From: a virus
Strand: one strand, 5' to 3'
Virus record (IMG/VR): IMGVR_UViG_3300020185_000041
Coordinates: 1-64,000 of that record
DNA length: 64,000 nt
Positions 4,493 through 45,463 of the stretch are shown piece by piece. The notes beneath the pieces were generated by a model. The model did no database searches, was not told where the DNA came from, and saw only the letters and a program-made list of their open reading frames with translations. Every line of letters begins with the position of its first letter. Position 1 is the first letter of the stretch. A program made the position numbers and the translations under genes.

Positions 4493-4989
4493 TGGAAGAG
4501 TACGATATAGAGCCTTTCATTCCTGGGGTTAAGACTAAGGGTCGCCCCTTGAGTAGTGTTTTAAAACAAGCTGTTAAGGCTCCTTTTAAGCTTGCTGGAG
4601 CAGCAGTTAAGGCTCCTTTTAAACTTGCTGAAGGTTTAATAGAAAATATAGCCGCTCCAGTAGTTATGAAACCATACCAGTTAGCTACTGATGCGGTTGT
4701 ACGCAATAAATTAAAAAAACCGTTTGAATACCAACACGATGTAGAGTTTGCCGGACTTAATGTACCAGTAAGCCACAAACTAGACGCTAGTAAAAGCTCT
4801 GTAGATCGGGGTTTTGCGTTTAATAGAGGCGGTTTTACTACTGATTACAATTTTGTCATCGACCACGAAATCAGACTAGGTGAATCAAGACCTCTCTCCG
4901 ATCCATCAAAAGCATCGGAGTATGCTAAAAACAGCAGAGTCCCAATAAGCAAGCCCTTAGGTACTGGTCTTCACCCTCGAAACAGGTAA
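4492..4989 (+). CDS. hypothetical protein with amphipathic repeat, 165 aa
   Basis: ATG 4492 overlaps the previous stop (ATGA) and is preferred over the GTG six bases upstream. Residues 20-45 hold two copies of a KAPFKLA-type amphipathic segment, which could bind membrane or form a helical hairpin. The middle is beta-like, and the C-terminus (LGTGLHPRNR) resembles the end of the lysozyme. The stop shares its last base with the terminase start. Probably a small virion protein; no family recognised. Confidence 0.6.
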   Translation: MEEYDIEPFIPGVKTKGRPLSSVLKQAVKAPFKLAGAAVKAPFKLAEGLIENIAAPVVMKPYQLATDAVVRNKLKKPFEYQHDVEFAGLNVPVSHKLDASKSSVDRGFAFNRGGFTTDYNFVIDHEIRLGESRPLSDPSKASEYAKNSRVPISKPLGTGLHPRNR

Positions 4990-6755
4990 TGGAAGATAAA
5001 ACTAAACAGCTTGAGGATCTTATCCGTATCGATCCTGAGGTTTGGTTCAGTACATTTGCGGTAATCAAGGACAAACGGGGTAGGGATATTAAGCCCAAGC
5101 CGAATACCTTGCAGAAACGAATGTTCAATCATTATCGAAAATGTCAGATCGAGGATAAACCGTGCAAAATGATCATATTAAAGCCTCGTCAAAAGGGTGC
5201 TAGCACCTGCGCTCAGGCTTTGACATATCACCACATGCGCAAACATGCGACCCTTGCCGGATCCTTGATGGGTGATATCAGTGGAACTTCGGATAAAGTT
5301 TTTGAGATCTATCGTCGCTATGCTGAGAATGACTTATTTCCTTGGGAATCTAATGGAGCGGCTAGCGTATTGGACGGTGGATCCTTGGTTGATTTGATTA
5401 AATTAAGAAGCGGTAGTATTTATGGTAAAGAAACCGCGGGATCCAAAAATGCTGGTCGATCTGGTACCATTCAGGTTGGTAATATGACGGAGGTTGCATT
5501 CTGGCCTATGCAGGGTGAAAGAGACCCTGCTCTTGGATATTTGCAGAGTTTATATGACGGTGACAATTTATCCTTGGTTGTCGCAGACTCTACCCCTAAT
5601 GGCCCGGCCGGTTGGTTTTATCGTACCTGGGTGCAAGACAATGAATGGGCGAAGATATTCGCTGCATGGTTTGAATTTGAGGACTCCATAGTCCCATTTG
5701 AAACTGATGAACATAAACAAGACTTCATTGATACCATGACGGAGGATGAAAAGTCTGAAATGGAACGCTTTGAAGTAAATTATGAACAATTGCATTGGCG
5801 TCGTCGTGTTCTCCAGGACAAATGCAATGGGGACATTAGTAAATTTCGTCAGGAATATCCTAGTGATCCTGAAGAATGTTTCTTAATGAGTTCTCGTCCA
5901 AGATTTCACACTGCAAATCTTGATAAAATGATCAAGGCCAGCGCTAATGTAACCAGTAAAATTGGAACTCTTACCCTTCAGGGCGAAGGAAAGACCTCTA
6001 GCTTTCTTCCTGATCGTGCGGGCTCTTGGAAAATCTACGAAGAACCTGAGCATGACTCCAAATATTTAATCTCTGCGGATACATGTACCGGGGAAGACCA
6101 ACAAACCCAAGGAATCTCTGCAGATCCTGACTACCACAGCGTACAAATTTGGAAAGCCCCCTTTGAAGACTGGCATGGTAACTGGCATGTCCCCCGTTTG
6201 GTCGCGATTCACCATAGTCGTTTGGACATTGGAATCTTGGCCCAGGAGGTTGAAGCCGCATCAAAATGGTATGGTGATGCATTTATCATCCCTGAGGTTA
6301 ATAATTCTGGTCTGGCATTGTTAAAGTACCTGCTCGATATGGGATTATCTGTATATCGCCGTAGAAAATTTAATGATTCCATGGGTATGGTTGAAAAGAG
6401 CTATGGCTGGTCCACTGATAAAATTACTCGAAAGACAATTATTGATCATTTGGCCGCTGAATTGATCGAAGAAAATTTAGATATCCCGGATGAAGATGTA
6501 CTTCGCGAGATGAAAACCTTTGTAATTAATGATCGTGGCAAGCCTGAAGCTGCTCCCGGCCATCATGACGACCATGTCCTAGCTACAGCCATTGCATTGT
6601 ATAACATCGATAGTGCATCGACATACAAGAGCCCGAAAAAGAAGAAGATTACTAATCGCATGCTTCATAAAAACCCTAGCCTTCTATGTCCTGACGGCTT
6701 CATGCGCGTGCCTCTCAATGCATTGAAGAAGAATTACAAGCGGTTGAGACCATAA
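4989..6755 (+). CDS. terL: terminase large subunit
   Basis: The ATP-driven packaging motor and nuclease, 588 residues. The ATPase has a Walker A variant KPRQKGAST at residues 65-73, with the Q-K-G-A-S form common in podoviral terminases, and a Walker B-like VGNMTEVAF near 160. The C-terminal RNase-H-fold nuclease shows an acidic strand ISADTCTG near 355, a PEVNNSG segment, and HHDDHVLATAIA near 540, which supply the metal-binding acids. It acts with the small subunit and the portal to cut and load DNA. It lies in a tightly packed chain with the genes on both sides. Confidence 0.95.
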   Translation: MEDKTKQLEDLIRIDPEVWFSTFAVIKDKRGRDIKPKPNTLQKRMFNHYRKCQIEDKPCKMIILKPRQKGASTCAQALTYHHMRKHATLAGSLMGDISGTSDKVFEIYRRYAENDLFPWESNGAASVLDGGSLVDLIKLRSGSIYGKETAGSKNAGRSGTIQVGNMTEVAFWPMQGERDPALGYLQSLYDGDNLSLVVADSTPNGPAGWFYRTWVQDNEWAKIFAAWFEFEDSIVPFETDEHKQDFIDTMTEDEKSEMERFEVNYEQLHWRRRVLQDKCNGDISKFRQEYPSDPEECFLMSSRPRFHTANLDKMIKASANVTSKIGTLTLQGEGKTSSFLPDRAGSWKIYEEPEHDSKYLISADTCTGEDQQTQGISADPDYHSVQIWKAPFEDWHGNWHVPRLVAIHHSRLDIGILAQEVEAASKWYGDAFIIPEVNNSGLALLKYLLDMGLSVYRRRKFNDSMGMVEKSYGWSTDKITRKTIIDHLAAELIEENLDIPDEDVLREMKTFVINDRGKPEAAPGHHDDHVLATAIALYNIDSASTYKSPKKKKITNRMLHKNPSLLCPDGFMRVPLNALKKNYKRLRP

Positions 6756-6779: not shown

Positions 6780-9149
6780 ATGGCAGAGAAAACCCGCGAA
6801 GAATTTCTAGCAGAGTTCGCAAAAAATATTTTTGACGAAACTTATTTCAGCACATTTACCGACGACAATGCTTTTTTTGATGCGGCGAAGTACCTTAAGG
6901 ACAACGGTATTCCGGTATCCGAGTTAGACAAGCAGTTTAAAAAGCTTCAACAAAAGTATGTAGGTTCCAGGCCGCGGGCTAAAGACAATCTGTTCGACAT
7001 TATCGGTTCCGAGTACGGAAGATCCGAGGTTAAGGGTATGCGAGATCGTTTCGGTTTTGACTCTACTAAAGAGTTTAACTCTCGAACCGAAGCTCGCAAA
7101 GAAGAGAAAGCGGCGGAAGCGCTAGAAGAACAGCCCGCCGAACCTGCCGAGGTAGCCGAAGCGGTCGAGCCTCAGGCAGAAGCAGTGCAAGCCGCTCCAA
7201 AAGAGCAAGTAGATGTAGACCAAGGACCTACTTTAGAAAATCCAGCCGGTCTTGCCGCTATGGCGGACAATCTTGGCGCTAGATTTCGCGACCCTAGGAT
7301 AAAAAGTATACCGGCAATACAGCGCCGGAACATGGAAAAAGCCCTTAACGCCCAAGCGTTAAGAGGTATAGATGAGGATATCGCAAAAAAAAGACGGGAA
7401 GACCGCACCCAAAAAATATTTGACGACCGGGACGCCGATTTAAAAGAAGCTTGGGCACGAAGCCGCACCGGTAGAAGAACAGGTCTTACTTTTGATGAGC
7501 TTGATGCGGATACCCAAGCAGATATGCGCAACAGGTATAACGATAGCCGCGAGGCAGGAGCTTATTCGGACGAAAAGTACGAAGCGTACAAAGAAAATAC
7601 TAAAGATCCTTTGGAAAAAGAGTATGAGCGTAAACTCAAAGCATTGCAGGAGAGTCGTGCATTACCCCCTCAAGATCCTTTTATTGAAGAGACTAAGACC
7701 GACGCTATGTTTACGCAGCCCAGAGGTCCGGAATCCTTCGAAATGGATCCAGCTGCAGCTGCATCCGCAAGCGCTTTCTATGACAACGCGGTGAAAAGGG
7801 CCGCAAGCCTGGAAGATCCAGCTGCATCCGCAAACGCTTTCTATGACAACGCGGTGAAAAGGGCCGCAAGCCTGGAAGGTATGCCTCCTAGTGAATCAGG
7901 TTATTCATCAGCAGATTCAAAACCTTTTCAAGTAGATACAACATCTAAAGATAAATTTGGTCCTCGTAGAGAGTATACATTTACAGATCCTACTAGGCCT
8001 GAAAAGCCTGTAGCTCCCGAATCGTTTGAATTATTCATGCCTCCTAGTGAATCAGGTTATTCATCAGCAGATTCAAAACCTTTTCAAGTAGATACAACAT
8101 CTAAAGATAAATTTGGACCCCGTAGAGAGTATGTGTTTACAGATCCTACGAGGCCTCAAAAGCCAATAGCACCTGAATCGTTTGAATTATTCATGCCTCC
8201 TAACGAAGCAGGTTATTCATCAGCAGATTCAAAACCTTTTCAAGTAGATACAACATCTAAAGATAAATTTGGTCCTCGTAGAGAGTATATGTTTACAGAT
8301 CCTACTAGGCCGGAGAAACCTATAGCTTCCGAATCATTTGAATTATTCATGCCTCCTAGTGAAGCAGGTTATTCATCATCAGATTCAAAACCTTCTCCGG
8401 TAGATACAACATCTAAAGATCCGACAGCCGCCGCAAACGCTTTCTATGACAACGCGGTGAAAAGGGCCGCAAGCCTGGAAGGTATGCCTCCTAGTGAATC
8501 AGGTTATTCATCAGCAGATTCAAAACCTTCTCCGGTAGATACAACATCTAAAGATAAATTTGGTCCTCGTAGAGAGTATACATTTACAGATCCTACTAGG
8601 CCGGAGAAACCTATAGCTTCCGAATCATTTGAATTATTCATGCCTGAAGCTAACCCGGGTAAAAGCCTTACGTCTCAGCAGCCTACTTTGGACGAGCCGG
8701 TATCAGTACCTCCTTCGCAAGATTCGCTTAAACCCAAACCTGCATATACCGCTGAAAATGCACAGCAAGATTACGACGAGATCAAAGCTATGCGTGACAT
8801 GGAAGAAGCGAAGCGAATTAGTCAGCTTAATTCTCAGATTCAATTGACCAACATGCAGAAATCTAAGGCTCAGAATATTGCAGATACTAAAGCTTATCAC
8901 AACCAGACCGCACCAACCTACGGTAAACGAAATGACGGCACTTACGGGATTATGCACGACCCCCGCAGCCCTCAAGCAATGAAAGAGCGCTCCGTCGTTA
9001 TGCAGGGTATAAACAACTCTAAATCAGGTGATCCTATGCAAGACTGGATGGACTCAAGAAAAGAAGAGGACGAGCGTAAGCGTAGGCAGCAAAAATTCGT
9101 ATCTCAGTCGAAGGCTAGTCCGTTTTACAATAAAAGTATTTTCGGGTAA
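6780..9149 (+). CDS. large repeat-containing probable virion protein, 789 aa
   Basis: The N-terminal 130 residues are helical and acidic, followed by an alanine/glutamate-rich linker. Residues 320-620 hold a tandem repeat of about 52 residues (MPPSESGYSSADSKP... to ...SFELF) interspersed with NAFYDNAVKRAASLEG segments. The C-terminal 170 residues are coiled and basic. It shares a VDQGPT motif with the N-terminus of the giant protein that follows 14 bases later, which hints that the two are packaged or ejected together. No enzymatic motif seen. The position between terminase and portal fits an internal virion protein. Confidence 0.7.
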   Translation: MAEKTREEFLAEFAKNIFDETYFSTFTDDNAFFDAAKYLKDNGIPVSELDKQFKKLQQKYVGSRPRAKDNLFDIIGSEYGRSEVKGMRDRFGFDSTKEFNSRTEARKEEKAAEALEEQPAEPAEVAEAVEPQAEAVQAAPKEQVDVDQGPTLENPAGLAAMADNLGARFRDPRIKSIPAIQRRNMEKALNAQALRGIDEDIAKKRREDRTQKIFDDRDADLKEAWARSRTGRRTGLTFDELDADTQADMRNRYNDSREAGAYSDEKYEAYKENTKDPLEKEYERKLKALQESRALPPQDPFIEETKTDAMFTQPRGPESFEMDPAAAASASAFYDNAVKRAASLEDPAASANAFYDNAVKRAASLEGMPPSESGYSSADSKPFQVDTTSKDKFGPRREYTFTDPTRPEKPVAPESFELFMPPSESGYSSADSKPFQVDTTSKDKFGPRREYVFTDPTRPQKPIAPESFELFMPPNEAGYSSADSKPFQVDTTSKDKFGPRREYMFTDPTRPEKPIASESFELFMPPSEAGYSSSDSKPSPVDTTSKDPTAAANAFYDNAVKRAASLEGMPPSESGYSSADSKPSPVDTTSKDKFGPRREYTFTDPTRPEKPIASESFELFMPEANPGKSLTSQQPTLDEPVSVPPSQDSLKPKPAYTAENAQQDYDEIKAMRDMEEAKRISQLNSQIQLTNMQKSKAQNIADTKAYHNQTAPTYGKRNDGTYGIMHDPRSPQAMKERSVVMQGINNSKSGDPMQDWMDSRKEEDERKRRQQKFVSQSKASPFYNKSIFG
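7881..8639 (+). repeat. 156-bp in-frame tandem repeats
   Basis: Units begin at 7881, 8037, 8193 and 8349 (exactly 156 bases apart), then again at 8484 after a 63-base segment. The unit at 8349 is truncated. Copies are nearly identical in DNA, which indicates recent duplication. A second segment encoding NAFYDNAVKRAASLE recurs at about 7771, 7831 and 8439. Confidence 0.9.
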
Positions 9150-9163: not shown

Positions 9164-12100
9164 ATGTCCATGTTCGACGAGCTAGATCTCGGAGCTAAAG
9201 ACTACAGCGGTAAGGGCGAAGGCTCTGGCTTTGAAAAGTTTTTAAGTAAACCAAGTCCCCGACCATACCAACCTTTTGGCGGACCTATGCAGCAGGCTTA
9301 CCAGCCGCAACCCGAGCCCGTTGACTACAGCTATGGAGAAGCACCCGTTGACCAAGGACCTACGTTTTACGACGATTTAGATGCATACGAGCAGCTAAAG
9401 AATGGGCATAAGCAGATTAGTCAGTTTTCACGCGAAAACTCTAAATCCGCTAAGCGGTATGAAGACTTGTACGGAGAATTCATGGACAATGAGTTCAAAC
9501 CTTTCTTTGAAAGCGTTGGAGGTTTTGGAGACTTTGAGTCTGATGACGAATATATCTCCGCGGTTGATGAAATATATAAGTCCAATCTCAAGGCATCTCA
9601 GCAGGAGGACGGTTGGCTTGGGGCCTCTGACGAAAAAACTAGGGCATTAGAGGGTTTAAAGAATTTTCAGCAGTGGGATCACCCCAACGGTATGCGGGCC
9701 AAGTTCCTCAGGCTAAAAGCCGAAAAGGATAAGCGTCGAGAAGTTGCCGATAGAGCTAAAGATGAAGAGTTTAAATTCTTCGAACAGCTGACAAACATTT
9801 CTATCCCAGCCCGCGAGGCATTGGACGAATCTCTTAAGTCTCGTAATAAAGCTCCAGGTAGCGCCAAAAAGATGAACGAAATGCTCGACGGCATGAGCTG
9901 GGAGCAGCCTATCGTCGGATACGACGGGGAGGTACAAAATTTAGAAAGCGTAGATCCGAGAGCAAAGATCAATCCGGCCATCGGATATGACGGTCAGGGT
10001 AATAAATCTAGCAAAGCTCAGAAAGAGCGAGTTGCTGCAGCTATGCGCGGAGATATCAAAGGCGTATTATCAAGAAGGCAGCATATCGCCAAAGGGCGCC
10101 AGCTTAGGGACAAAGGATTTTTCTTTTCCGAATCTGGATTGCTTGACGGCAGACCCATAGGCATGAGCCGTCGCGATGTCGATTTACTCGATATTGATGA
10201 TATGCGTAAGGCTGGCATGACTAGCTTCCAGGGCAAACCATTGGACCAGGCTATGGCTGATCTTGGTGGTGAAGAGCGTTTGGAAATGGCTAAGGTCATG
10301 CAATCTGTATACTCGACAAAGAGTAATTACGAAGACGCTCAGTTAAAATTTCTTAAAGCGGCGGGCGGTCCTAAAGCTGACAAGTTGCGCGATGCTATGG
10401 AAGCTGCGCGTGAAGATATGCAAAAGACTATTGGTCTGGCTGCTAGCTATGGTCTGGACAACGAATTGTTCGAACAGGCAGAGACTACTGGCTGGCTCTC
10501 GGCTATGGGCAATGCTGTTCAGCGTGGTGCTCTGATGAGCGAGATGAGTAATTATACTCCTGACTTTCTGACTAATACATTGGATGCGGATGAGATGCAG
10601 CGATTTATCGAAATCGCATCGGAGATCGAGAAACTCCCGACTAGCTCCACGATGAAGCGTGTCAAAGAGACTAAGTCTGATGGCTTTCTCGATGCTATGG
10701 GAAATCTATTATTTGATAATCCCGCTGCGATTCCCGAAATGTTCGTGGAGTCACTATCATCATTTCTGCCTAGCACAATTAAATGGCTTCTTCCATCGGC
10801 TGCTGCTGGTGCAGCGGCGGGAACAATTGTTGCTCCCGGCGCAGGAACCGCGGCCGGTGCCGCAATTGGTGCTCGTGCATCCTGGGGTGTCGCATCATTT
10901 GTACTTGAAGCCTCCGGCATGGCACTTGAAGGCATGCAGGAATTAAACATCGACTGGAAGAATCCAAAAGTCTTTGCCGCTGCCTGGACGAACGAGAGCA
11001 TACGGAGCAAGATTCAAAAGAAGATGGTACAGAAGGGCACACCTATCGCCATCGCTGACATGCTTACTGGTATGATGGCTGGCAAGGTTATGGGCGTAGT
11101 TAACCATACCGGCAACGCCGTGTTCAAAGGTGGTAAGCTTTTAAATAAGGAAGCATTTAATGCGGCCAATGGAGCTGTCCCGAGGTTTAAGCTCATGCAA
11201 AAGACCCGCAATGCTGCGGCTGAGCTCGGTGCAGACTCTTTCATGGGTATGTCCGGGGAATATCTCGGACAATGGGCAAGCAAAGAACCTGGCGAAGATT
11301 GGGACTGGGATGCTATCGCTGCTGAAGGATTGGTCGGAGTTGGCCCTGGAGCTGTTGGCGCTGCACTTGAAATGCGCGGCCCGCGAGCTAATTACTTTGG
11401 CAATGCACCTATCGATATTACTGGAGAAACTCAGACAGAGACTGGATCAACAGGTACAGTAAACCGTGCCGGATATCAGGCGAATTACCAAACCTTTAAC
11501 GATCCCGAATCCATGATGGCTCATTTCGAGGATGTTGTCCCTCAGGGCACAACTCCCGAGGATCAGGATCGTAGGGCTGCCTCGCTAGACTTTACCCGTC
11601 GCTGGGTTACTACCATGTTTAAGATTCGTCCCGAAGCAATGGCTGGATTGAAGGTAGTAATTAGCGACCGTACTCCTGATGCAAATCTTAAAAATCGTGG
11701 AACTTTTGAATCTCGGGACGGTAATAACATCATCTATTTAAACGAGAAAGAATTCGCACAGGATCCCATGGGTGCAATGCTTCACGAATCTGGTCACTTC
11801 GCCCGCATCATGATGCTCAAAGACGAAGAGCTCACGAAGCTATGGGGCGGATTAAAAGAGGGTGAACAGCTCGACGCTTATACTCAATACTATACAAAGG
11901 ACTATGAGCGCAGCTTCGAGGAGCATGATGAAAAGACTCAGAAAAAGATCCGTCGTGCATTTAATAAGACTGATAATGAAGTCCTCGCGGAAGAGTGGTT
12001 TTCTTACCAGTGGGCAAGAGTTCTTAATTCAAATTACAAACCTGACAAATCTGTTAAAGGTCTTGAAAAGTTCTATTCCGGGTTAGTTCGTCCATTATTC

Positions 12101-15100
12101 GCAGAGTTTACTGGGAGCGAAAAAGCAGCGGGTGATAAGAAGGGCAATGAATTCATGCTCGATGAGCAAATCCGACAGTTCTTGGAGGATGGATTTACTC
12201 CTAGCATGCAGACCGAGATCGATAATGCTCAGGCTCAGCGAGATGCTCTTGGAGCTTTGTATGAAGAAGGTCTACCTACTCAAAAAGAGTCAAACCGAGT
12301 AGGTAAGGCTAGAAGCAAAATACCTGGCCAGCTTCAGAAAAAGCTAAAGGCCATGGGCCTCGCGCCAAAGAAAGCGGCCCAAATGGCTAGAACATTAAAC
12401 GCCATGGCGGGGGAGAAGATTTTGTCTACGGATCCATCGTTCTATACAAACATGGAGCGCGGATCCCTGAAAGCCGCTGGCGCTGATATTGAGGAGGGTA
12501 AACCAGAATCTGAAAAAAGGCCTGAGAATCAGGATCCGATGTTTATAGAATCAGCAGAAGGTCTAGCAAATGTAGAATCTGTTACAACTTTTGAAAAAGG
12601 GAGACCCAAGACTTATGAAAGTAAATCAGATAAAGAATCTCCTCGTGCTCAAGGAAGTAACCGTAAACAAGCTAGTCGTCCAGGAGCAGAGCCATACTTC
12701 GCTTCAGGCAGAGATTATGGCAGAGTTAAAGATAAGCTGGAAAAAGTTGAGAGTAAACGAGACAGGCCGTCAGCTAAAAAGACTCTCAAGAAAACAAAGA
12801 ATTTAAGCAAGGATACGCTGAAGAGACAGGCAGAATCGCTCGAGAAAAAAGCACTAAACGATAGAGTCAGGCTTGCTAAAAAATCAGGGGAGGTTAATAG
12901 ACGCAAAACAGCAGTTCAAGCCCGCGACGCGGAGATGAAAAGGTTGGATTTGTTGCTCAAGAATATGAGCAAGTCCGACAGGATTAAACTCGGGCAAGCG
13001 ATTAACGCCGCAAAAAACGCTTTCCCCGACATTGAGACCTTAGACCGTAAGCTTGATGCCGCTATGGACGAGCTAGGTCCCGAAGCCTCCTCCGGTCAGA
13101 TTATATCCAGACTTTTAAATCTGGAGGAGCTTACAGAGCTCGCCCCTCGGTCGTTTACTAAAGAGATGCGTAAACTCCTCCAGGAATCACGAGGCAAGCT
13201 CGCGAGCAATGAGGATATTGAAGATGTATCGTTCGAAATTACCGATGAAATACTCGATATTAAAGAACAGCTTAGAACACGAGTTGATGAGATTGATAAG
13301 CAGATCGCTAGCCTTCAAAAAGGCGCAAGCCAAAAGCCAAAAGCCGCAAGCCAAAAGCCGGAGGCCGGAGAGACAACAGTTGAGGCCGAAATTGACGCAC
13401 TGAAAAATGCACGAAAGTTAGTAAAAACATACCTCGAAGCAGTAGCACCTGAAGAGTTGAGTATTGAGTGGAAAGACATCCCCGCTCACGCAATTTTCTA
13501 CGCTTCTAACGGTAAGAAGTATTCAGCAGAGCCTATGACTTTAGGACAGCTTGCCGATCGCCGGGACGGATTTAAGAAAGGACAACTTTACTACAAGAAC
13601 AGCAAGGGCGAACTCGTTGAGGCCAAAAATGAAAGTCGTACCGGGCAAGAGATTTTATGGGACCATATTTCCAAGTTTGATATCGAACAAACCGGTAAGA
13701 CAACAGACTTTGGATATACTAAAGACGGTGAACTGATAAAGCCTAGAAAGTACGAGCTTATATTGGAAGCGGTTAAGGCTTCGGCATACTTCCGTAAATC
13801 TGCAGCTCCTAAAAAAGACGGCGGCGTGGGAGCGGATCCCATGGGCGTCGCACGGTTTGAGAAAACAGGGCAGGGTCAATCATCTCCCAAAGGCTATGCC
13901 CGGAAAGACCCGCAAGGCTTCGAAGTTTCTTCTACGGCGAATACTAATATCGGAAAAGCTTTCAGCGCATTTAACGCTAAACTTTCAGACGGTAAATCCA
14001 TCGAGTATCATTATCAGGTTAATGTAAAAGGGTATCCCAGCATTAAAGCGGGCAAAGGTAAGCCGCCTAAGGACACAAGTATAGATAGCTACGGGGAATA
14101 CAAAAAACTTTGGGAGCGATTTGCTAAAGAAAACCCTAAAAAGATCAAAGCTCTAAAAAAAGCGGCTGCAGGCCGTGTTCTTACAGATCGCTATGCTACA
14201 ACCGAAGTTAATCAGGCCAGAGCTTTATACGAGATACTGGCGGAACCTAGCAACAGAGAAGCCCAAAAAGGATACCCCGCAGGCTATCAATCTAATAAAG
14301 GTACAAATTACGCAGCGCTTATCGCATCTCGTTTAGGCATTCTAAATTCCATGAAGCCGTTATCGAACGATCCTAGCCCTAGTGAAATATTGGCTTTGAA
14401 GATGGCTAATGGTCGAGCACTTGAATTGTTGGGAGATCCTACTGAGACTGAGAGAGATTTTAATAAAGCTATTTATATAGCACTCCTTGAGGAATTGGGT
14501 GTTGAGCAAAGCGGTATGCTTAGTGACCCCGTACTCGTAGAAGAGAGAGATTACGCAGAGACCGAGGAGTATACTAGAGGTGCTCTGGAGAAAATATCAA
14601 ACGGTACACCTGTCGTAGCTGCGATAGCGGGTATTCCAAGCACTTCAAAACGCCAAGCTTTTCAAAGACAAGTTCGTGATGACGACGCCGCGTCTGCTCA
14701 GACCGAAATTGTAGAGTCTAAAAAGATGGATCGTCCGGACGAGACAAACCCTGTCTGGGAAGAGTATGGAAAGAAGGGCCAAGAAAAAGCGGCGCCTGAA
14801 ATTAAAAGAAAAGGGACTAGTGAGGTCGTATTAAATATTAACGGTCTCAAAGTACCTTCAGCTAGAGCTTACAAAGCCCGCAGGCCAGACGAAGATTTAG
14901 ATAAACCCGTACCAGAAACCGAGCAGCACCAATCCTTTACTAGAGGAAAAGTTTATGAAACTTTTGACGTTGTAACCTCTTTTGCCGAGGGGCGTACTAA
15001 AAGAGAGGTCGCTAAGTTTAATAAAAACCGGACTAACATTCAAAAGTCTGAAGAGTTACCGACTAATCCGATATCTATCGAGCGTGAAAATGCTGACCTG

Positions 15101-18100
15101 TTATCAACTACTGACATTAACGCGGCTGAGTTTGCCGAGTGGTATATGTCCGGAAAGCCTGAGTCGCAGATGGAAGATTTGCAACTTGTTCCGTCTTCCA
15201 AAAATAATCAGCAAGCTAAAGGTGGTTTAGGCGAAGGTTTTTTACCGTATGTATTCTTAGATTTCGCTCGAGCTATGTACAAAAAACTAGGGCTCATAGG
15301 TATAGCTGCGGAAACTATGGAGCAAGCTCGCGAAGCTGAAAAAGCCGCGGCTAAGAGTGAAAAGGGTAAGTATAGCAATTTTAAATGGAATCTTGAACAA
15401 GGCGCACTTCTTGAAAACGGAAAGATCAATCCCAAACAAAAGATTTTCACTAAGCCTGCGGATCGCATGACCCCGGTTGGAATGGCGATTATCGCTAAGC
15501 CGATTGTACAAGCAGTAATCGATGCTCGTGGTGTAGATATTTACAATCAAATAGATAGGAGCGCTTCAGTTTTATTGCAGCGAGATATCGATAGGGCTGA
15601 GCAAGAGGGTAGTCGCGAGAGTCTACAGGATGGAGCCTTTGTTGAACGGGGTGAGGAGATGCAAGAGCTTGGAGCTGTTACCCAAGATATTTTTAATCCT
15701 GACAGCGAGACTTTATCTCAAGAAGATGCTAAGAAAGGTGTAGTCTCCGCTGCGGAGAAAGCTCTAGATGAAAATCCGGATGTTCTTAAAAATAAAGACT
15801 CAGTAAGCGACGAGCTGCTTGAAGAATTGTATTACTCAAGCACTTCTAACGACCTTACTAATGCGGCAGAAAAAGAGCTTCAACGACGAGGAATTAAAGC
15901 TTTGTATGTTGTTCGAGAAGAAACTGCAGACCAGCTCAATAAAATTCTCAACTCCGACGCCGGCACAGGTGTTTGGTATCGTGGTGATACTGCGGGGAGA
16001 ACAAAAGGTCTTATAAATTTAGCCCCCAACTATGAAACTTCACTAGGTTATGCAAGGGGCGGTTATATGGACGAGGAGGCGTTTGACCTTGATGGTGATG
16101 CAATGAATGCCGAAGCCTCCAAAAATACAAAAGCATTCCGTCCGCAAATTAAGAAAACGTTAGACCTTATTAAGAGTGCCGAAGACAGAAAGGTTTTAGG
16201 GTCTTTGGATGATATGGGTTATCGTTGGGCTAAGTCAGCCATAAAGATGATACGAGATCTCGAGGAGTACCCTAATTGGTGGGCGAATACAAAGCCCAAT
16301 GCTCAAGAAGCGTGGGAAAAAGCCTTAATACCGCAGCTTAAAAAACTTGGCTACGACTCTATTTTGTTCAGAGACGATTACCACGACACTTTAGCTGTCT
16401 TTGATGTTTCTCAGCTTAAACCAGTATCCCCCAAGACCCTCAACTCCGACGCCAAGATTTTAACCAGCGACGCAGACCCAAATCTTGCGAAAGCAACCTT
16501 GCTTGGTCGGATCGCGGGCGATAGCGAGCTGATCAAAGAATTTAAGGAATGGGCCGGAGGTAAAAAGCAAAGCCTGAGCAAAGGTAGTCTTAAAATGGAT
16601 CTGGTAGACCGTGCAGACCCGCTTAATCAATTAAACAAATTATTCCTTAAAGGATTTGAAGCTGTCGGACTGGACAGTTCGAACCCGCTATATAAAGCAT
16701 TAAATGTTTATGGTAAATACTACCAGTTCTTCGGCGAGGGTGATAACAGCGTAGAGCAAGCTAGACTTGAATATTACGAGCCTATGATGGAGCTCATGCG
16801 CGAGTATAATGTCGACGAAAAGAAAATTGGGGAGTACCTAAACGCCCGGGCAGCCCCGAGTAGAAACTTACAAATCGAAGCTAAAGCTTTGGAAGCTCTA
16901 AAGGAGATGGAAAAAGATCCAGAAGGCCCCAAAAGCGAGAAGTATAAAAAGATTGAGAAGTTTTTCTTTAATACGACTGAAGATGGTAAACGTACAATCA
17001 AGCGAGACTCGGGAATTAGTACTGAGACTGCGCTCAAGGTTGTGGCTGAGATGGAGAAAGAGCCTAGGTTCGTAGAGTTCTTAGACAAGTTTCTTATAAA
17101 ATATTATAAGATGAACAAGGAAGGTTTAACTACGCTTGCTAGCACAGGTATGATCGGCCAAGACACTGTTTCAAAAGAGGGTATAAATGAAGTTGAGGCT
17201 ATGAGAAAAGCGATGTCCCGCTTTGATTTTAAAGGGGGTAAAGCTGATAAGTACGGTAATAAATATAAATCTAAAGTATCTGCACTTGAGGATAATTATT
17301 CTTACTCTCCACTCCAGGGATTCGAAGGAGAGACCGAGAATTTCTACGAGCAAGAAGCAGCCTGGGAAGAGTTTGGCGCAGGATCAAATGCAACAGGAAA
17401 AGGGTTTGATCAGAAGAAAAGCGATCTAATCCTACAAGGCGCTTTTGGTAGGTATAAGTCAGGCGCACCTGACCCATCATTGACTTTAGGAAATTCTTTT
17501 AGGCAGCATATCTCTAGCGCCATTCTAGCTCAAAAAAATACAGTGGCTCAGAAATTTGGTATGGTTTACGGAATGATGCGTGCCGTAATTTACGACAAAG
17601 ACGGTAACGAACATTTCAATGCGAACCGGCTTACTGAAGAGGATAAGAATGATCCGATATACCAAGCATACGAAGAACTAATTAAATTAAAAGAGCCCGG
17701 TAATGAGACCGCTTTTAAAAACCTAAAATCTGAGTTCGACCAAATTTTTGACCCGAAAGGTTTTGAAGAATCTGAAACGGTGACCCAATACGAACTACAT
17801 CAAACAGGAGAGATTGGAATTGTTCGCCGCGAGATGAGTCAAAAATTTAAGAATGATCCGACAGCGTTTACCTATCGAAGAAACGGGATTCCCCAATTCA
17901 TAAAATTCACAAGCAAAAGCGAAGGTCTTAGGATGGCGGATACAATGAAGAATTTAAGGTATGAGAATTTACCCCAGATCCTTCAGGGCTTTAATACAGT
18001 GACTCGTGGAATGGCCCAGATGTTTACCTCAGCCAATCCGGCTTTCATACTACCCAACTTCTTTCGAGATGTTGCAACTGCCGCGATTCATTTAGGTGAA

Positions 18101-19804
18101 GATGATAAAAAGGTTCTAATCAAAGACGCATTAAACTTTAAGAATCTTAGCGGTTTCATGAAAGAAATCTATAAGGTTGAACAAAAGATCCATAAAGGAA
18201 TCAATCCGAACACTAAAGATAAAGAGATCATGAATCTCTTAGCATCTGGAGACCCGAAAAAGATACTAGCGTCCGGAAACCGTCAGGCCATGTTCCAATA
18301 CTTTAAAGAGGCTGGTGGTAAGGTTGGATATTTTAGGCACGAATCTCTCCCTGAGAAGATTAAACAGATACAAAAAGATCTTAAAGGTAAGAAGGGATGG
18401 ACAAAGAAAGGATGGAAAGGAATGTGGCAGACCATAGATTCTATGAACACTGCCGTGGAAAACTCCATCCGTGCATCTACATTTTGGGCAGCGATTAAGG
18501 ATGGAAGATCTACTGACGAAGCAGCTCACATCTCAAGAAATGTAACCGTCGACTTTAATCAAAAGGGCAACCTCACACAGACCTTTGGCGCACTCTATGT
18601 ATTCTTTGGTGCTTCGGTAAATTCCATGCATAGATTTTATAGGACCTTAAGTCGCAGGACTCCGGCCCAAAGAGCAGCTCTTATTGGTGGAATGGCCAGT
18701 GCTGCACTTATCGTAAATCTGTTTAATCGATTAATGGACGACGATGAGGACGAAGAGATTCCAGACTACGACACTATTAGCACATATAAAAGAGATACTA
18801 ATTTTATTCTTCCTGTACCCGCTGGTCTTCCTGACTTCTTTAACGACGAGAAAGATACTGGATACTTCAGTCTGCCACTTCCCTTAGGTTACAATTTATT
18901 TTGGACAATGGGTCAGGTCATGGGAGATATGGTCGCAAAGAATGTATTTAATAGGGGAGGGATGGGCTTCTTTGGTAGTGCTACTCGTGTACAAGAAAGT
19001 TTCTTAAATGCATTCAATCCCGTTGGCGGTGCTAGTTTAATAACAGCAGCATTTCCAACAGCCGTTACTCCTCTTGTTGAATTGTACGCGAATAAAAACT
19101 TCATGAATAAACCGATCCGCTATGCTGATCGTCCATTCGAAGTACCTAAACCCGCACATATGCAGGATCCTAGGAGTACACCGGATCACTGGACTAAACT
19201 ATCCCGATCGATCAATGAATTCATGGGTGGTAGCGATGATGTAAAAGGTTCGCTCGCGGGCATGATGGGTAAAAACCCATTATACTACAATTCTGACGAG
19301 GATATAGAATTTGATATCTCAGGTAATCAGATGAAACATTTACTTTACGGATATCTTGGTGGTCCTGGTCAGATAGCTGACACTCTATTTGGTGGTATGT
19401 TTTCTGCAGCCAAAGGAGATTTATCCGTGAAAAACATTGGTGACATCCCAGTAGCTAATCGTTTCATGCGAGCCACGACCTACGGATCTGCGACCCGCAA
19501 CTCATTTCTTAATCTGCGTGACGCTACCAAGAATGCCGAGAAGGTTATCAAGTCTGCAAAGATTATAGGACCGAAGGTTTATACCACCGCACTGAACGAC
19601 AATAAAAAACTCTTACAACTATCATCGCAGATTAGTGCATTTGATAAACAGAAGAACAAGATGCGCAGACTGAAAAAACAGATCGAATCTTCTAAGGCGT
19701 TGTCTGATAACCAGAAAACGCAACGGGTGGACGAGTTGCAGAAGAAAGAGTTAACTCTTATGATTGCGGTCATAAAGAAAGCTCAGGCTCTCGGAATTTC
19801 ATAA
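9164..19804 (+). CDS. giant polyvalent ejection protein (zincin, ART-like and LPD38 domains)
   Basis: 3546 residues, one intact frame. Residues 1-420 are helical. Residues about 540-570 form an Ala/Gly-rich hydrophobic stretch that could insert in membrane. HESGH at 874-878 with a downstream AEEWF (near 945) is a zincin metallopeptidase signature. Residues 1040-1450 are charged coiled coil. YRGD near 2272 with GYDSILF and AVFDVSQLK (to about 2420) matches an ADP-ribosyltransferase fold as in the ART-PolyVal family. The last 600 residues, with NPAFILPNFFRDVATAA, NVTVDFNQKG, a DDDEDEE turn and GYFSLPLPLGYN, match large polyvalent protein domain LPD38. Such proteins are thought to enter the cell with phage DNA and act on host targets. 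Catalytic activity is inference. Confidence 0.85.
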   Translation: MSMFDELDLGAKDYSGKGEGSGFEKFLSKPSPRPYQPFGGPMQQAYQPQPEPVDYSYGEAPVDQGPTFYDDLDAYEQLKNGHKQISQFSRENSKSAKRYEDLYGEFMDNEFKPFFESVGGFGDFESDDEYISAVDEIYKSNLKASQQEDGWLGASDEKTRALEGLKNFQQWDHPNGMRAKFLRLKAEKDKRREVADRAKDEEFKFFEQLTNISIPAREALDESLKSRNKAPGSAKKMNEMLDGMSWEQPIVGYDGEVQNLESVDPRAKINPAIGYDGQGNKSSKAQKERVAAAMRGDIKGVLSRRQHIAKGRQLRDKGFFFSESGLLDGRPIGMSRRDVDLLDIDDMRKAGMTSFQGKPLDQAMADLGGEERLEMAKVMQSVYSTKSNYEDAQLKFLKAAGGPKADKLRDAMEAAREDMQKTIGLAASYGLDNELFEQAETTGWLSAMGNAVQRGALMSEMSNYTPDFLTNTLDADEMQRFIEIASEIEKLPTSSTMKRVKETKSDGFLDAMGNLLFDNPAAIPEMFVESLSSFLPSTIKWLLPSAAAGAAAGTIVAPGAGTAAGAAIGARASWGVASFVLEASGMALEGMQELNIDWKNPKVFAAAWTNESIRSKIQKKMVQKGTPIAIADMLTGMMAGKVMGVVNHTGNAVFKGGKLLNKEAFNAANGAVPRFKLMQKTRNAAAELGADSFMGMSGEYLGQWASKEPGEDWDWDAIAAEGLVGVGPGAVGAALEMRGPRANYFGNAPIDITGETQTETGSTGTVNRAGYQANYQTFNDPESMMAHFEDVVPQGTTPEDQDRRAASLDFTRRWVTTMFKIRPEAMAGLKVVISDRTPDANLKNRGTFESRDGNNIIYLNEKEFAQDPMGAMLHESGHFARIMMLKDEELTKLWGGLKEGEQLDAYTQYYTKDYERSFEEHDEKTQKKIRRAFNKTDNEVLAEEWFSYQWARVLNSNYKPDKSVKGLEKFYSGLVRPLFAEFTGSEKAAGDKKGNEFMLDEQIRQFLEDGFTPSMQTEIDNAQAQRDALGALYEEGLPTQKESNRVGKARSKIPGQLQKKLKAMGLAPKKAAQMARTLNAMAGEKILSTDPSFYTNMERGSLKAAGADIEEGKPESEKRPENQDPMFIESAEGLANVESVTTFEKGRPKTYESKSDKESPRAQGSNRKQASRPGAEPYFASGRDYGRVKDKLEKVESKRDRPSAKKTLKKTKNLSKDTLKRQAESLEKKALNDRVRLAKKSGEVNRRKTAVQARDAEMKRLDLLLKNMSKSDRIKLGQAINAAKNAFPDIETLDRKLDAAMDELGPEASSGQIISRLLNLEELTELAPRSFTKEMRKLLQESRGKLASNEDIEDVSFEITDEILDIKEQLRTRVDEIDKQIASLQKGASQKPKAASQKPEAGETTVEAEIDALKNARKLVKTYLEAVAPEELSIEWKDIPAHAIFYASNGKKYSAEPMTLGQLADRRDGFKKGQLYYKNSKGELVEAKNESRTGQEILWDHISKFDIEQTGKTTDFGYTKDGELIKPRKYELILEAVKASAYFRKSAAPKKDGGVGADPMGVARFEKTGQGQSSPKGYARKDPQGFEVSSTANTNIGKAFSAFNAKLSDGKSIEYHYQVNVKGYPSIKAGKGKPPKDTSIDSYGEYKKLWERFAKENPKKIKALKKAAAGRVLTDRYATTEVNQARALYEILAEPSNREAQKGYPAGYQSNKGTNYAALIASRLGILNSMKPLSNDPSPSEILALKMANGRALELLGDPTETERDFNKAIYIALLEELGVEQSGMLSDPVLVEERDYAETEEYTRGALEKISNGTPVVAAIAGIPSTSKRQAFQRQVRDDDAASAQTEIVESKKMDRPDETNPVWEEYGKKGQEKAAPEIKRKGTSEVVLNINGLKVPSARAYKARRPDEDLDKPVPETEQHQSFTRGKVYETFDVVTSFAEGRTKREVAKFNKNRTNIQKSEELPTNPISIERENADLLSTTDINAAEFAEWYMSGKPESQMEDLQLVPSSKNNQQAKGGLGEGFLPYVFLDFARAMYKKLGLIGIAAETMEQAREAEKAAAKSEKGKYSNFKWNLEQGALLENGKINPKQKIFTKPADRMTPVGMAIIAKPIVQAVIDARGVDIYNQIDRSASVLLQRDIDRAEQEGSRESLQDGAFVERGEEMQELGAVTQDIFNPDSETLSQEDAKKGVVSAAEKALDENPDVLKNKDSVSDELLEELYYSSTSNDLTNAAEKELQRRGIKALYVVREETADQLNKILNSDAGTGVWYRGDTAGRTKGLINLAPNYETSLGYARGGYMDEEAFDLDGDAMNAEASKNTKAFRPQIKKTLDLIKSAEDRKVLGSLDDMGYRWAKSAIKMIRDLEEYPNWWANTKPNAQEAWEKALIPQLKKLGYDSILFRDDYHDTLAVFDVSQLKPVSPKTLNSDAKILTSDADPNLAKATLLGRIAGDSELIKEFKEWAGGKKQSLSKGSLKMDLVDRADPLNQLNKLFLKGFEAVGLDSSNPLYKALNVYGKYYQFFGEGDNSVEQARLEYYEPMMELMREYNVDEKKIGEYLNARAAPSRNLQIEAKALEALKEMEKDPEGPKSEKYKKIEKFFFNTTEDGKRTIKRDSGISTETALKVVAEMEKEPRFVEFLDKFLIKYYKMNKEGLTTLASTGMIGQDTVSKEGINEVEAMRKAMSRFDFKGGKADKYGNKYKSKVSALEDNYSYSPLQGFEGETENFYEQEAAWEEFGAGSNATGKGFDQKKSDLILQGAFGRYKSGAPDPSLTLGNSFRQHISSAILAQKNTVAQKFGMVYGMMRAVIYDKDGNEHFNANRLTEEDKNDPIYQAYEELIKLKEPGNETAFKNLKSEFDQIFDPKGFEESETVTQYELHQTGEIGIVRREMSQKFKNDPTAFTYRRNGIPQFIKFTSKSEGLRMADTMKNLRYENLPQILQGFNTVTRGMAQMFTSANPAFILPNFFRDVATAAIHLGEDDKKVLIKDALNFKNLSGFMKEIYKVEQKIHKGINPNTKDKEIMNLLASGDPKKILASGNRQAMFQYFKEAGGKVGYFRHESLPEKIKQIQKDLKGKKGWTKKGWKGMWQTIDSMNTAVENSIRASTFWAAIKDGRSTDEAAHISRNVTVDFNQKGNLTQTFGALYVFFGASVNSMHRFYRTLSRRTPAQRAALIGGMASAALIVNLFNRLMDDDEDEEIPDYDTISTYKRDTNFILPVPAGLPDFFNDEKDTGYFSLPLPLGYNLFWTMGQVMGDMVAKNVFNRGGMGFFGSATRVQESFLNAFNPVGGASLITAAFPTAVTPLVELYANKNFMNKPIRYADRPFEVPKPAHMQDPRSTPDHWTKLSRSINEFMGGSDDVKGSLAGMMGKNPLYYNSDEDIEFDISGNQMKHLLYGYLGGPGQIADTLFGGMFSAAKGDLSVKNIGDIPVANRFMRATTYGSATRNSFLNLRDATKNAEKVIKSAKIIGPKVYTTALNDNKKLLQLSSQISAFDKQKNKMRRLKKQIESSKALSDNQKTQRVDELQKKELTLMIAVIKKAQALGIS

Positions 19805-19810: not shown

Positions 19811-21838
19811 ATGAAGGAATCAAACCTTAAGTTAAACAAGAAACAGGAAGAAAAACTCGTCGAGTATACGCTCGAACGGGTCAGACAACTTAAGGAGGAT
19901 AACCGCGAACGTATTGAGACGGATAAGATCTCTTGGAAGACATATCATAACGATCGTACAGACCGTGTGTCATACGATGGTATATTTAGTCACTCGAATC
20001 TTTCAGTACCCATGACTTCTCTTGTCGTAGATCATTTCATGGCACGGGCCGAGGATGAGATAACCGGGACGAGTCCCTACTTTAAATTCGAAGCCCAGGG
20101 AGCGAGCGACCTGGAAACTGCCGAGGGATACGACAAGTATTTCAACTGGAAGATTGAGGATCAAGCAAAGACACGCGAGCGTCTTGAAGAATCATATCTT
20201 CATTTATTTATCCAACGTGCATTAGTTCTTAAGTCTACATATCGCGAAGATATATCCGTGTGGTATGATTATGAGCGTAATGGCTTGTTCAATAATCAAA
20301 CAGGTGCATTTGAAGAGATACCCGGCGAAGGACCAATCATTGAAGGAGAATCTCAATTCATTCCCGAAATCAATCCTTTGACCGGAGAAACAGAACTTCG
20401 ACTTGCGACCGATCCAAGTTTCCAGATGATCCCTGGAGTTCATGAATTTCAACCCTTACCTCAAGGGGTTCCCACCCAACAGGTAAAGTACAGAGGTCCA
20501 AGGTCGGAGGTCATAGACTCAGACCGTTTCCTTTGCCCGAGTACCGCAGAATCTGTGGACGAGGCTGACATCGTTGTAGAATTGTACGACAAAGATTTAA
20601 AATGGGTTCGTGACATGTTCATGAATCGGGACTGGATATCATTTCCTGATTATTTAAACCTCATGAAAAAGGATGCAAATCCAAGGTCGGAGACGCAGGA
20701 AAACGAGGAGAGAAAAGAAAACTTATCTTTTGATTCCGATGAAAATCCAGTCGTTCCAATTATTGAATGTTGGATTAAACGAGATGTTCTTGGAACTGGA
20801 ACACCTCAGGAATTTTGCATCTTTATAGATACCGAGACTGAAAAGCCTATCTATTATGAATATGTTGCGAAACTAACTCCTGATAACAAAGTTCCATATA
20901 CCGCAGTTTCCATCGGGAAAGAGCGGAACAAGTGGTGCGGCGACAGTTTGCCCGAAAGAATTCGTAGCTTCCAAGAATATGTAGACCGCCAATTTAATTC
21001 TCAGAGCTATCGTAATGAACTCGCTGCTAATCCGATCATTGGAATTAATGCTCAAGCTGTAGAGGACGAGCCTGAAGATGTTGAGCTCCATGCCGGAAAG
21101 ATTTTTGAATTAAAGGATCAATATAGCATTGATGACTTTATAAACTTTGCCGCTGTCCCCAATGTCGATGTCCGAACTCAAGACTTGATTGATTTTGTAT
21201 TTGGAATTGTCCAGCTCTGGCTCGGAGTTTCTAATATGGCACAGGGAGATTATCAGGCATTAGCTCCTGCAAATACAGCAACAGGAGTGGAAGCAACCCT
21301 TCGCGAGGCGTCTAAGATTGGTCGTCGTTGGATGCGTCGAATTGTTCGTGGTTTTGAAGAGCACTTGACCAAACTCGTTCAGGTAACAATGGCAACGATC
21401 GATGAGGAAGAAGTATTTGAATATATGGAAGGTGATGTTCGTGCCTTTGGCGTGATGTCCCCAGAAGCAATTCGTGATATCGGAATAAATGTTCGAGTCA
21501 TGCTGTCTCAGGACCAAGGTCAACGGGCTATTGAAAAAGCCAATCTCGCATTGCAGACACAAGACAGATACTTCCAATCTCCTCCAGAGATGCGTCCTTT
21601 CATGCGTCCTATGCTTAAACGCATTCTTGATGCTATGGGATTCGAGAAGACCGATGAATTTTTACCTCCAGAAGCTCCTGCCGATCCAAAGAGCGAAGCA
21701 GAGATTGCCAAGATGCTTGGTGACAATGCCGCACAGGGAGAGGGTGGGGAAAGCCCAGCTCCAAGGGATGGCGTATCCGCCGTCGCAAGTGGTATGGGTA
21801 ATAGTAATCCCCAAGGAATGAATCAATATCAGCAATAA
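19811..21838 (+). CDS. portal protein
   Basis: A 675-residue portal, the dodecameric ring at the capsid vertex through which DNA is packaged and ejected. It has the usual order: a helical N-terminal clip/wing region (RQLKEDNRERIETDKISWKTY), a central beta-rich wing, the stem region with RSFQEYVDRQFNSQSYRNELAANP, and a C-terminal crown (AIEKANLALQTQDRYFQSP...). A polar, low-complexity tail follows. Its place after the ejection protein and before the scaffold and capsid fits podoviral order. The ATG starts seven bases after the giant gene's stop. Confidence 0.85.
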   Translation: MKESNLKLNKKQEEKLVEYTLERVRQLKEDNRERIETDKISWKTYHNDRTDRVSYDGIFSHSNLSVPMTSLVVDHFMARAEDEITGTSPYFKFEAQGASDLETAEGYDKYFNWKIEDQAKTRERLEESYLHLFIQRALVLKSTYREDISVWYDYERNGLFNNQTGAFEEIPGEGPIIEGESQFIPEINPLTGETELRLATDPSFQMIPGVHEFQPLPQGVPTQQVKYRGPRSEVIDSDRFLCPSTAESVDEADIVVELYDKDLKWVRDMFMNRDWISFPDYLNLMKKDANPRSETQENEERKENLSFDSDENPVVPIIECWIKRDVLGTGTPQEFCIFIDTETEKPIYYEYVAKLTPDNKVPYTAVSIGKERNKWCGDSLPERIRSFQEYVDRQFNSQSYRNELAANPIIGINAQAVEDEPEDVELHAGKIFELKDQYSIDDFINFAAVPNVDVRTQDLIDFVFGIVQLWLGVSNMAQGDYQALAPANTATGVEATLREASKIGRRWMRRIVRGFEEHLTKLVQVTMATIDEEEVFEYMEGDVRAFGVMSPEAIRDIGINVRVMLSQDQGQRAIEKANLALQTQDRYFQSPPEMRPFMRPMLKRILDAMGFEKTDEFLPPEAPADPKSEAEIAKMLGDNAAQGEGGESPAPRDGVSAVASGMGNSNPQGMNQYQQ

Positions 21839-25625: not shown

Positions 25626-25627
25626 AT

Positions 25628-25870
25628 ATGAATATTAAATACGTCATCGTAGACAGCAGTGATATAGGGAATATGGATTTTAATAGCCTGCTTCAAAAAT
25701 CTGAACTCTCGCTAAGATATTCGTCAGACCAGTCTAAGTTTATCGTAAAGCATGTAGGTGAAACTCCTGATTTTTTAAGCGGGTACGAGAGCCTTAACTC
25801 CGCTCAAATTTTAAGTGTGGTTAAAACATCTGAGTGGTCACCTGTAAATCCCGAGGAGGAGAATATTTAA
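25628..25870 (+). CDS. small protein between two lectin genes, 80 aa
   Basis: The ATG lies two bases after the upstream stop; the product is mixed alpha/beta and acidic. Its place directly after a receptor-binding gene resembles that of dedicated fibre chaperones, as does the gene at 27475-27747 after the second lectin. No sequence match recognised, so the chaperone idea is inference. Confidence 0.6.
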   Translation: MNIKYVIVDSSDIGNMDFNSLLQKSELSLRYSSDQSKFIVKHVGETPDFLSGYESLNSAQILSVVKTSEWSPVNPEEENI

Positions 25871-25872
25871 TC

Positions 25873-45334: not shown

Positions 45335-45463
45335 ATGCACAATGTCCAACGCGAGATCTATTGGATTGTCGTGATGGTCATGTTCTTCCTGGAGCGCGAA
45401 GCAATCCTAGACATTATGTTCATGCTCATAAAGCTGGCCATAATTTGGTCAGGCAGCCCATAA
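45335..45463 (+). CDS. small hydrophobic membrane protein, 42 aa
   Basis: ATG 45335 lies two bases after the preceding stop. The product has two hydrophobic segments (YWIVVMVMFFL and ILDIMFMLIKLAIIW) around a charged EREA turn, a compact two-TM hairpin. It is the last gene of the late rightward run and overlaps the 3' end of the integrase by 15 bases. It could be a second holin or antiholin, a call based on topology only. Confidence 0.5.
   Translation: MHNVQREIYWIVVMVMFFLEREAILDIMFMLIKLAIIWSGSP

What the first reader, a model, noticed from the sequence alone, without database searches (positions are those of the whole stretch)
9164..19804. 3546-residue polyvalent protein combining a zinc protease motif, an ART-like domain and LPD38
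HESGH with a downstream AEEWF, an ADP-ribosyltransferase-type YRGD...GYDSILF...AVFD block, and a C-terminal LPD38 domain lie in one frame with Gly/Ala-rich hydrophobic stretches. Polyvalent proteins with many effector domains are known from phages and conjugative elements (Iyer and co-workers), and are thought to travel with the DNA into the host. This combination would give the phage both a protease and a host-modifying enzyme from the first moment of infection.
Basis: partly seen in the sequence, partly recalled or inferred. Interest (0 to 1): 0.72.

Follow-up and report, generated by a model that had tools for sequence, protein, structure and literature searches.

The report
Cysteine-free phage giant with swappable cargo
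This phage gene encodes one huge protein, almost certainly carried in the virus particle and pushed into the host cell, whose ends are fixed while the enzyme-bearing middle (here probably including an ADP-ribosyltransferase) is exchanged between phages like a cassette, and whose whole family avoids the amino acid cysteine.

Summary
One 3546-aa ORF (9164-19804) carries HESGH/AEEWF, the YRGD...GYDSILF...AVFD block and LPD38 (90 bits). It is a polyvalent protein of a portal-terminase phage. The C-arm is homologous to the giants of Bcep22-like and Stx podoviruses; JC1 gp69 is abundant in purified virions. Zincin: HExxH is invariant in 23 family sequences and the AF2 model resembles M34/lethal-factor-like phage peptidases. 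ART: weak for this protein (17.4 bits, E 0.008, only the last third of ART-PolyVal), but the same slot in relatives holds ART-PolyVal domains (up to 35 bits).

(1) Zero Cys in 3546 aa and 2 Cys in 94,160 aa of 38 dereplicated relatives, the signature of N4 vRNAP and other podovirus ejection proteins. The adjacent 789-aa gene is Cys-free too.
(2) Versus three other contigs the arms are 97-98% identical in DNA, but residues 1092-2425 are a different cassette.
(3) Short recurring peptides (KILSTD, LNSDAG, LTSDA) sit at the seams and bracket modules. One slot holds ARTs, zincin-like modules, a helical module or nothing.

Best reading: a Cys-free injection chassis with exchangeable effector cassettes, possibly self-processed at the linkers.

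The parts
9164..19804 (+). Giant polyvalent protein ORF, 3546 aa, 0 Cys
   Evidence: TGT+TGC 0 in frame against 63-141 in the other five frames
9164..12436 (+). N-arm (aa 1-1091), 97% DNA identity to L002/L003/L004
10790..10924 (+). Gly/Ala-rich hydrophobic stretch (aa 543-587), possible membrane-interacting segment
   Evidence: weak DUF6861 match, E 0.0023
11441..12193 (+). Zincin-like (M34/lethal-factor-like) domain, aa 760-1010; HESGH 11783-11797, AEEWF 11987-12001
   Evidence: alignment of 23 sequences, AF2 model pLDDT 84.6, Foldseek viral top E 9e-4
12413..12436 (+). Left seam, peptide EKILSTDP (aa 1084-1091), where DNA identity to relatives ends
12437..16438 (+). Exchanged central cassette (aa 1092-2425)
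   Evidence: no other contig with this allele found in the scan
13907..14245 (+). Module homologous to a stand-alone ~120-aa protein of phiKZ-like jumbo phages (aa 1582-1694)
   Evidence: phrog_9995 E 6.9e-26; tblastn 39-47% identity, best E 3e-17
15947..15964 (+). Linker copy 1, LNSDAG (aa 2262-2267)
15965..16432 (+). ART-PolyVal-like module (aa 2268-2423)
   Evidence: PF18760 E 0.0079, 17.4 bits; hhalign 37.4 against a shuffle maximum of 20.1
16439..16453 (+). Linker copy 2, LNSDA (aa 2426-2430)
16460..16474 (+). LTSDA at the start of the C-arm (aa 2433-2437)
16439..19801 (+). C-arm (aa 2426-3546), conserved in 61 viral contigs
   Evidence: hhalign to BcepMigl giant prob 99.8, E 1.3e-27
18761..19447 (+). 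LPD38 domain (aa 3200-3428)
   Evidence: PF18857, 90.4 bits
6780..9149 (+). Neighbour gene, 789 aa, 0 Cys, also polymorphic; probable co-ejected partner
4989..6755 (+). Terminase large subunit
   Evidence: phrog_24361 and phrog_2
19811..21838 (+). Portal protein
   Evidence: phrog_1216 E 2.9e-24

Best explanation
The ORF encodes a virion-packaged, injected polyvalent protein of a (probably short-tailed) phage, built as a delivery chassis with a replaceable payload. The N-arm (Gly/Ala-rich hydrophobic segments plus a zincin) and the C-arm (LPD38 region) are the conserved chassis for packaging and delivery [inferred]. Cysteine is excluded from the whole polypeptide, as in N4 vRNAP, so that it can thread through the tail and the oxidising periplasm without disulfides [exclusion shown; reason inferred from published proposals]. 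The centre is a cassette exchanged between phages by recombination [shown]. Its last slot, bounded by LNSDA peptides, holds an ART-PolyVal-like module here, other effector-type modules in relatives, or nothing [shown as sequence; ART activity inferred]. The payload then acts on host targets or defences at once, and the zincin may cut the chassis at the recurring linkers to release modules [inferred, not shown].
For: Cys: 0/3546 here with 0 Cys codons in frame but 63-141 Cys triplets in the other frames; 2 Cys in 94,160 aa of 38 dereplicated relatives; 117 Cys in 13,114 aa of other window ORFs. Known ejection proteins checked here: N4 gp50-52, T7 gp15/gp16 and P22 gp7/20/16 have 0 Cys, T7 gp14 has 1, and P1 DarB/DdrB/DarA have 9/2/1. 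Published link of Cys absence to tail/periplasm passage. Virion presence of the homologue JC1 gp69, 51 unique peptides, whose group's C-arm matches at E 1.3e-27 (BcepMigl). Position between terminase and portal. Cassette exchange: arms 97-98% DNA identity, seams at 12435 and 16433; L077 shows a second recombinant with the L014 cassette at 98-99.6% beside a divergent zincin stretch. Slot contents: ART-PolyVal in L036 (35.2 bits) and L019 (23.7 bits), zincin-like modules in L020, helical in L016, empty in L014/L015. Zincin.
Against: No proteomics on this phage; host and morphology unknown. The ART score for this protein is below the curated threshold and covers only the last third of the profile; its structure prediction failed. 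The zincin has no significant PDB match and no sequence similarity to the N4 MPTase. This particular cassette was seen only in this contig. Cleavage at the linkers is not shown.
Confidence: 0.72

Rival explanations
1. An ordinary polyvalent protein as already described: the domain mix and mosaicism are general, cysteine scarcity is incidental, and the linkers are unstructured spacers without function.
For: MPTase + ART + LPD combinations and N4-like relatives are in Iyer et al.; LNSD is short.
Against: 0 Cys codons in frame with normal counts off frame; LNSD 2-4 copies against 0.05-0.07 expected in members with a filled slot, at module edges; the seams of the exchange coincide with the motif.
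Confidence: 0.2
2. The linkers are DNA-level recombination seams (short shared sequence that lets cassettes swap), not protein-level signals.
For: Two copies in this ORF share 15 identical nt (CTCAACTCCGACGCC); L016 copies share 18 nt; exchange seams lie at the motif.
Against: The third copy in L020 (TTA AAT TCA GAT) and the LTSD copies (ACC AGC against AAT TCC) keep the peptide with different codons, as do the LGSS copies in L049 and L042.
Confidence: 0.3
3. A structural tail or injection-channel protein only (like T7 gp16), with the enzyme-like motifs inactive remnants.
For: Cys-free like T7 gp15/16 and P22 ejection proteins; hydrophobic segments.
Against: HExxH and the downstream acidic residue are conserved across 23 divergent sequences; relatives carry several different effector-type domains (ART-PolyVal, cpYpsA) in the variable region.
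Confidence: 0.1

Closest known systems
Bcep22-like podovirus 'DarB-like' giants (JC1 gp69, BcepMigl) and Stx-phage giants (phrog_616)
   Same: Homologous C-arm (hhalign E 1.3e-27 to BcepMigl), giant size, virion protein in JC1, 0-2 Cys in the members checked
   Different: N-arm and cassette not shared in the searches made; 'DarB-like' methyltransferase/helicase parts not found here
Phage N4 virion RNA polymerase (gp50)
   Same: About 3500 aa, Cys-free; N4 has Cys-free neighbours gp51/52 as here; contains a zincin according to Iyer et al.
   Different: No RNA polymerase domain hit; no detectable sequence similarity of zincin or C-arm
Polyvalent proteins (Iyer et al. 2017)
   Same: Zincin, ART-like and LPD domains in one polypeptide, portal-terminase phage
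   Different: Cys exclusion and recurring linkers are not mentioned in that paper's text (no occurrence of 'cysteine' or 'linker'); cassette exchange between near-identical arms was not seen in the passages read
T4 Alt and MuF-ART head proteins
   Same: Head-packaged ADP-ribosyltransferase idea
   Different: Here the ART would be one exchangeable module of a giant protein

Membership tests
Polyvalent protein (Iyer et al.) | Several disparate domains in one polypeptide, with LPD domain(s) | tested here: met
   LPD38 90.4 bits; zincin-like fold; phiKZ-like module
Polyvalent protein (Iyer et al.) | Encoded in a portal-terminase phage | tested here: met
   terminase 4989-6755, portal 19811-21838
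Polyvalent protein (Iyer et al.) | Packaged and injected | not testable with these tools
   Only indirect: JC1 gp69 in virions, Cys exclusion
ART-PolyVal (PF18760) | Score above the curated threshold (31.2 bits) | tested here: not met
   Window slot 17.4 bits, E 0.0079; the L036 slot reaches 35.2. Hence 'ART-like', not filed as a member
ART-PolyVal (PF18760) | All three ART motifs (NAD-binding H/R, middle strand, C-terminal block) | tested here: inconclusive
   C-terminal block aligned; YRGD and APNYETSLGYA matched by eye only; model failed
Zincin MPTase of polyvalent proteins (M34/LF-like) | HExxH plus downstream acidic ligand, conserved | tested here: met
   H-E-x-x-H invariant; E at >=90% in A[ED][ED]WF of 23 sequences
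Zincin MPTase of polyvalent proteins (M34/LF-like) | Zincin fold | tested here: inconclusive
   BFVD top E 9e-4, prob 0.99, with M34 endopeptidase, 'lethal factor' and polyvalent proteins among the hits, but low TM; no PDB match below E 0.1, though metallopeptidases recur
N4-type virion RNA polymerase | Single-subunit RNAP domain | tested here: not met
   No RNAP family hit in Pfam or PHROGs
N4-type virion RNA polymerase | No cysteine | tested here: met
   0/3546 here; N4 gp50 0/3500
P1 DarB | Adenine methyltransferase and helicase domains | tested here: not met
   No such Pfam hit in the window protein
Bcep22/Stx podovirus giant family | Homologous C-terminal region | tested here: met
   hhalign prob 99.8, E 1.3e-27 to BcepMigl; phrog_616 E 1.5e-45

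The most novel reading that the evidence does not exclude
The family is a self-processing, cysteine-free delivery polyprotein: LNSD-type (in another clade LGSS-type) peptides are cleavage sites read by the protein's own zincin, which frees interchangeable effector modules after injection. Phages swap payload cassettes at these sites while keeping the delivery arms, giving a natural plug-in protein delivery system.
Probability: 0.27. Interest if true: 0.82.

Novelty: new variant of a known kind. Interest (0 to 1): 0.62.

Why it matters
It ties the polyvalent-protein idea to a measurable signature. Cysteine exclusion, so far noted for N4-like vRNAPs, extends to a large family of unrelated giants and to their neighbour gene, which gives a simple way to predict ejected proteins in metagenomic phages. 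The near-identical contigs with swapped payloads, including an empty slot, show where the chassis ends and the cargo begins, so delivery and cargo can be tested separately. The recurring linkers make the earlier proposal of zincin self-processing directly testable.

Tried and rejected
Pfam/NCBIfam on the whole protein gave no ART or zincin; PF18760 six-frame search of the virus record gave nothing. Relatives of the ART segment or of the cassette by single-sequence scan of viral contigs: none. AF2 of the ART slot: pLDDT 39, not used. PDB fold search of the zincin: no significant match. A scan of genome contigs for the C-arm found no relative, so no host could be named. hhalign of zincin and C-arm to N4 vRNAP: negative, so it is not filed as an N4 vRNAP relative. 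The first hhalign of the ART slot (prob 92) was inflated by the LNSDA linker (the control L016 reached 54) and was redone without linkers: 37.4 against a shuffle maximum of 20.1. One of 150 decoys exceeded it, and that one looks like an ART itself by eye (L064). Chance occurrence of HESGH was rejected (0.014 expected, and conserved).

Full report
OBSERVATION. The ORF at 9164-19804 (+) is intact, 3546 aa. The window is bases 1-64000 of a 68,875-base IMG/VR virus record. The gene is preceded by a terminase large subunit (4989-6755) and a 789-aa gene (6780-9149) and followed by the portal gene (19811-21838), with the major capsid protein at 31412-32875.

RELATIVES. The C-terminal third finds 61 viral contigs and, at lower identity, the giants of Vibrio podovirus 252E42.2, Stx phages, Burkholderia Bcep22-like podoviruses, Bacteroides phage BS-TP4, Methanosarcina virus MetMV and Aeromonas phage phiARM81mr. 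Profile comparison with the BcepMigl giant gives probability 99.8, E 1.3e-27 over 569 columns to near the C-terminus. In JC1, a Bcep22-like podovirus, this protein (gp69, 4515 aa; tblastn E 4e-14) was found in CsCl-purified virions with 51 unique peptides, second by score only to the major capsid protein; the product of the preceding gene (gp68) was found too (PMC9144972). BS-TP4 has the same giant-then-portal order.

CYSTEINE EXCLUSION. The protein has no cysteine. TGT/TGC triplets occur 0 times in frame but 63-141 times in each of the other five frames. The other window ORFs have 117 Cys in 13,114 aa, so about 32 would be expected. The giants of 61 relatives hold 4 Cys in 143,564 aa; 38 representatives dereplicated at 90% hold 2 in 94,160 aa. 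The same is true of known podovirus ejection proteins that I checked: N4 gp50-52 0/4294, T7 gp15 and gp16 0/2065, P22 gp7/20/16 0/1309; T7 gp14 has 1 Cys. P1 DarB, DdrB and DarA, from a contractile-tailed phage, have 9, 2 and 1. Absence of Cys in N4-like vRNAPs has been reported and linked to passage through tail and periplasm (PMC3715699, PMC3915230, PMC2784036). The neighbour gene 6780-9149 is Cys-free here and in the five relatives examined. More distant giants are low but not always zero: phi296 2, MetMV 3, BS-TP4 4 (incomplete), BcepMigl 0 (incomplete), phiARM81mr 0. I infer that this family is ejected through the tail; delivery itself is not shown for this phage.

CASSETTE EXCHANGE. Against L002, L003 and L004 (three different metagenomes) DNA identity is about 97% over the N-arm up to position 12435 and 97-98% from 16433 onward, but the centre (aa 1092-2425) is a different sequence, at best about 34-41% identical in three blocks. 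L077 is an independent recombinant: it carries the L003/L014 cassette at 98-99.6% next to a divergent zincin stretch, with a 44-bp conserved block ending at 12435. The neighbour Cys-free gene is polymorphic too: L005's copy is 91% identical for 281 aa and then unrelated. I found no other contig with this window's cassette, so chimeric assembly cannot be excluded from sequence alone; the intact 3546-codon frame with no Cys codon argues against it.

LINKERS AND SLOT. The left seam reads EKILSTDP, the right one KTLNSDAKILTSDADP. LNSDAG occurs also at aa 2262, so the last module of the cassette is bracketed by LNSDA peptides. The same arrangement is seen in L016, L036, L048, L019 and L020 (four LNSD copies), while L014/L015 have a single copy and no module, an empty slot. 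LNSD is expected 0.02-0.08 times per protein. Another clade shows LGSS peptides (L049 and L042, three copies each) with different synonymous codons. Codon differences between copies (L020 copy 3; LTSD against LNSD) point to selection on the peptide, whereas the 15-18 nt identity of some copies would also suit a recombination seam; both may be true. That they are protease sites is a hypothesis.

ART. The slot of L036 is ART-PolyVal above the curated threshold (35.2 bits) and that of L019 scores 23.7 bits over almost the whole profile. The window's slot scores 17.4 bits, E 0.0079, over profile positions 89-135 only. With linkers removed, hhalign against the relatives' ARTs scores 37.4; the best of 150 shuffles is 20.1, and the only one of 150 real decoys above it looks like an ART by eye. 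AF2 failed (pLDDT 39). I therefore call it ART-like. Other relatives carry different cargo: L020 two HExxH modules, L011 a cpYpsA SLOG domain (E 9.5e-24) and by eye a NADAR-like stretch, L048 DUF4326, L016 a helix-rich-looking module. SLOG and NADAR domains have been proposed to counter NAD+/ADP-ribose defences (PMC9503650).

ZINCIN. H-E-x-x-H is invariant and A[ED][ED]WF nearly so in 23 sequences. The model has pLDDT 84.6. In the viral structure library the best match has E 9e-4 (prob 0.99), with an M34 endopeptidase, 'lethal factor' and polyvalent proteins among the hits, though TM-scores are low; PDB gives metallopeptidases (MATCAP, an SprT-type protease, BlaR1, lethal factor) without significance. 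Iyer et al. propose that such MPTases process polyvalent proteins before, during or after delivery (PMC5512222).

MECHANISM. Shown: conserved arms, exchanged centre, linker pattern, Cys exclusion; published: a homologue in virions. Inferred: packaging and injection here, threading as the reason for Cys exclusion, ART activity, release of modules by the zincin. Known already: the polyvalent class, the MPTase+ART+LPD combination and Cys-free vRNAPs. Not found described in the papers searched (the library lacks most subscription papers): Cys exclusion across non-polymerase giants, linker-bracketed effector slots, and cassette exchange between near-identical arms.

Noticed in passing
window 6780-9149: 789-aa Cys-free gene directly upstream of the giant, polymorphic between near-identical relatives (L005 91% for 281 aa, then unrelated); no Pfam or PHROG hit. 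Probably a co-ejected partner.
   Followed up: partly
window 13907-14245: Cassette module (aa 1582-1694) 39-47% identical to a stand-alone ~120-aa protein of phiKZ-like jumbo phages (phrog_9995, PHIKZ082.1).
   Followed up: partly
window 23244-23642 and 28542-29002: Two structural-region genes with internal direct repeats (42-nt-register repeats; three 141-nt-spaced copies); repeats also match out of register in L003.
   Followed up: partly
window 24723-27453: Laminin-G/concanavalin-like lectin domain gene followed by a gene matching virion structural families; likely receptor-binding parts.
   Followed up: no
window 45449-46639 (-): Integrase-family gene (phrog_1, E 8e-19), and tRNA-Thr/tRNA-Ala at 55450-55612, suggesting a temperate lifestyle or relics of it.
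   Followed up: no
L011 aa ~1460-1760: A relative's cassette holds a cpYpsA SLOG domain (E 9.5e-24) next to a NADAR-like stretch (by eye), both NAD+/ADP-ribose-linked.
   Followed up: partly
L013 aa 1938 and 2153: Vibrio phage giant has AQFSQN and VMFSKE at what look like module edges, possibly another lineage-specific linker.
   Followed up: no
window 22920-23834, 30302-31372, 34041-35342: Three further ORFs of 304-433 aa without cysteine; may be other virion or ejected proteins.
   Followed up: no
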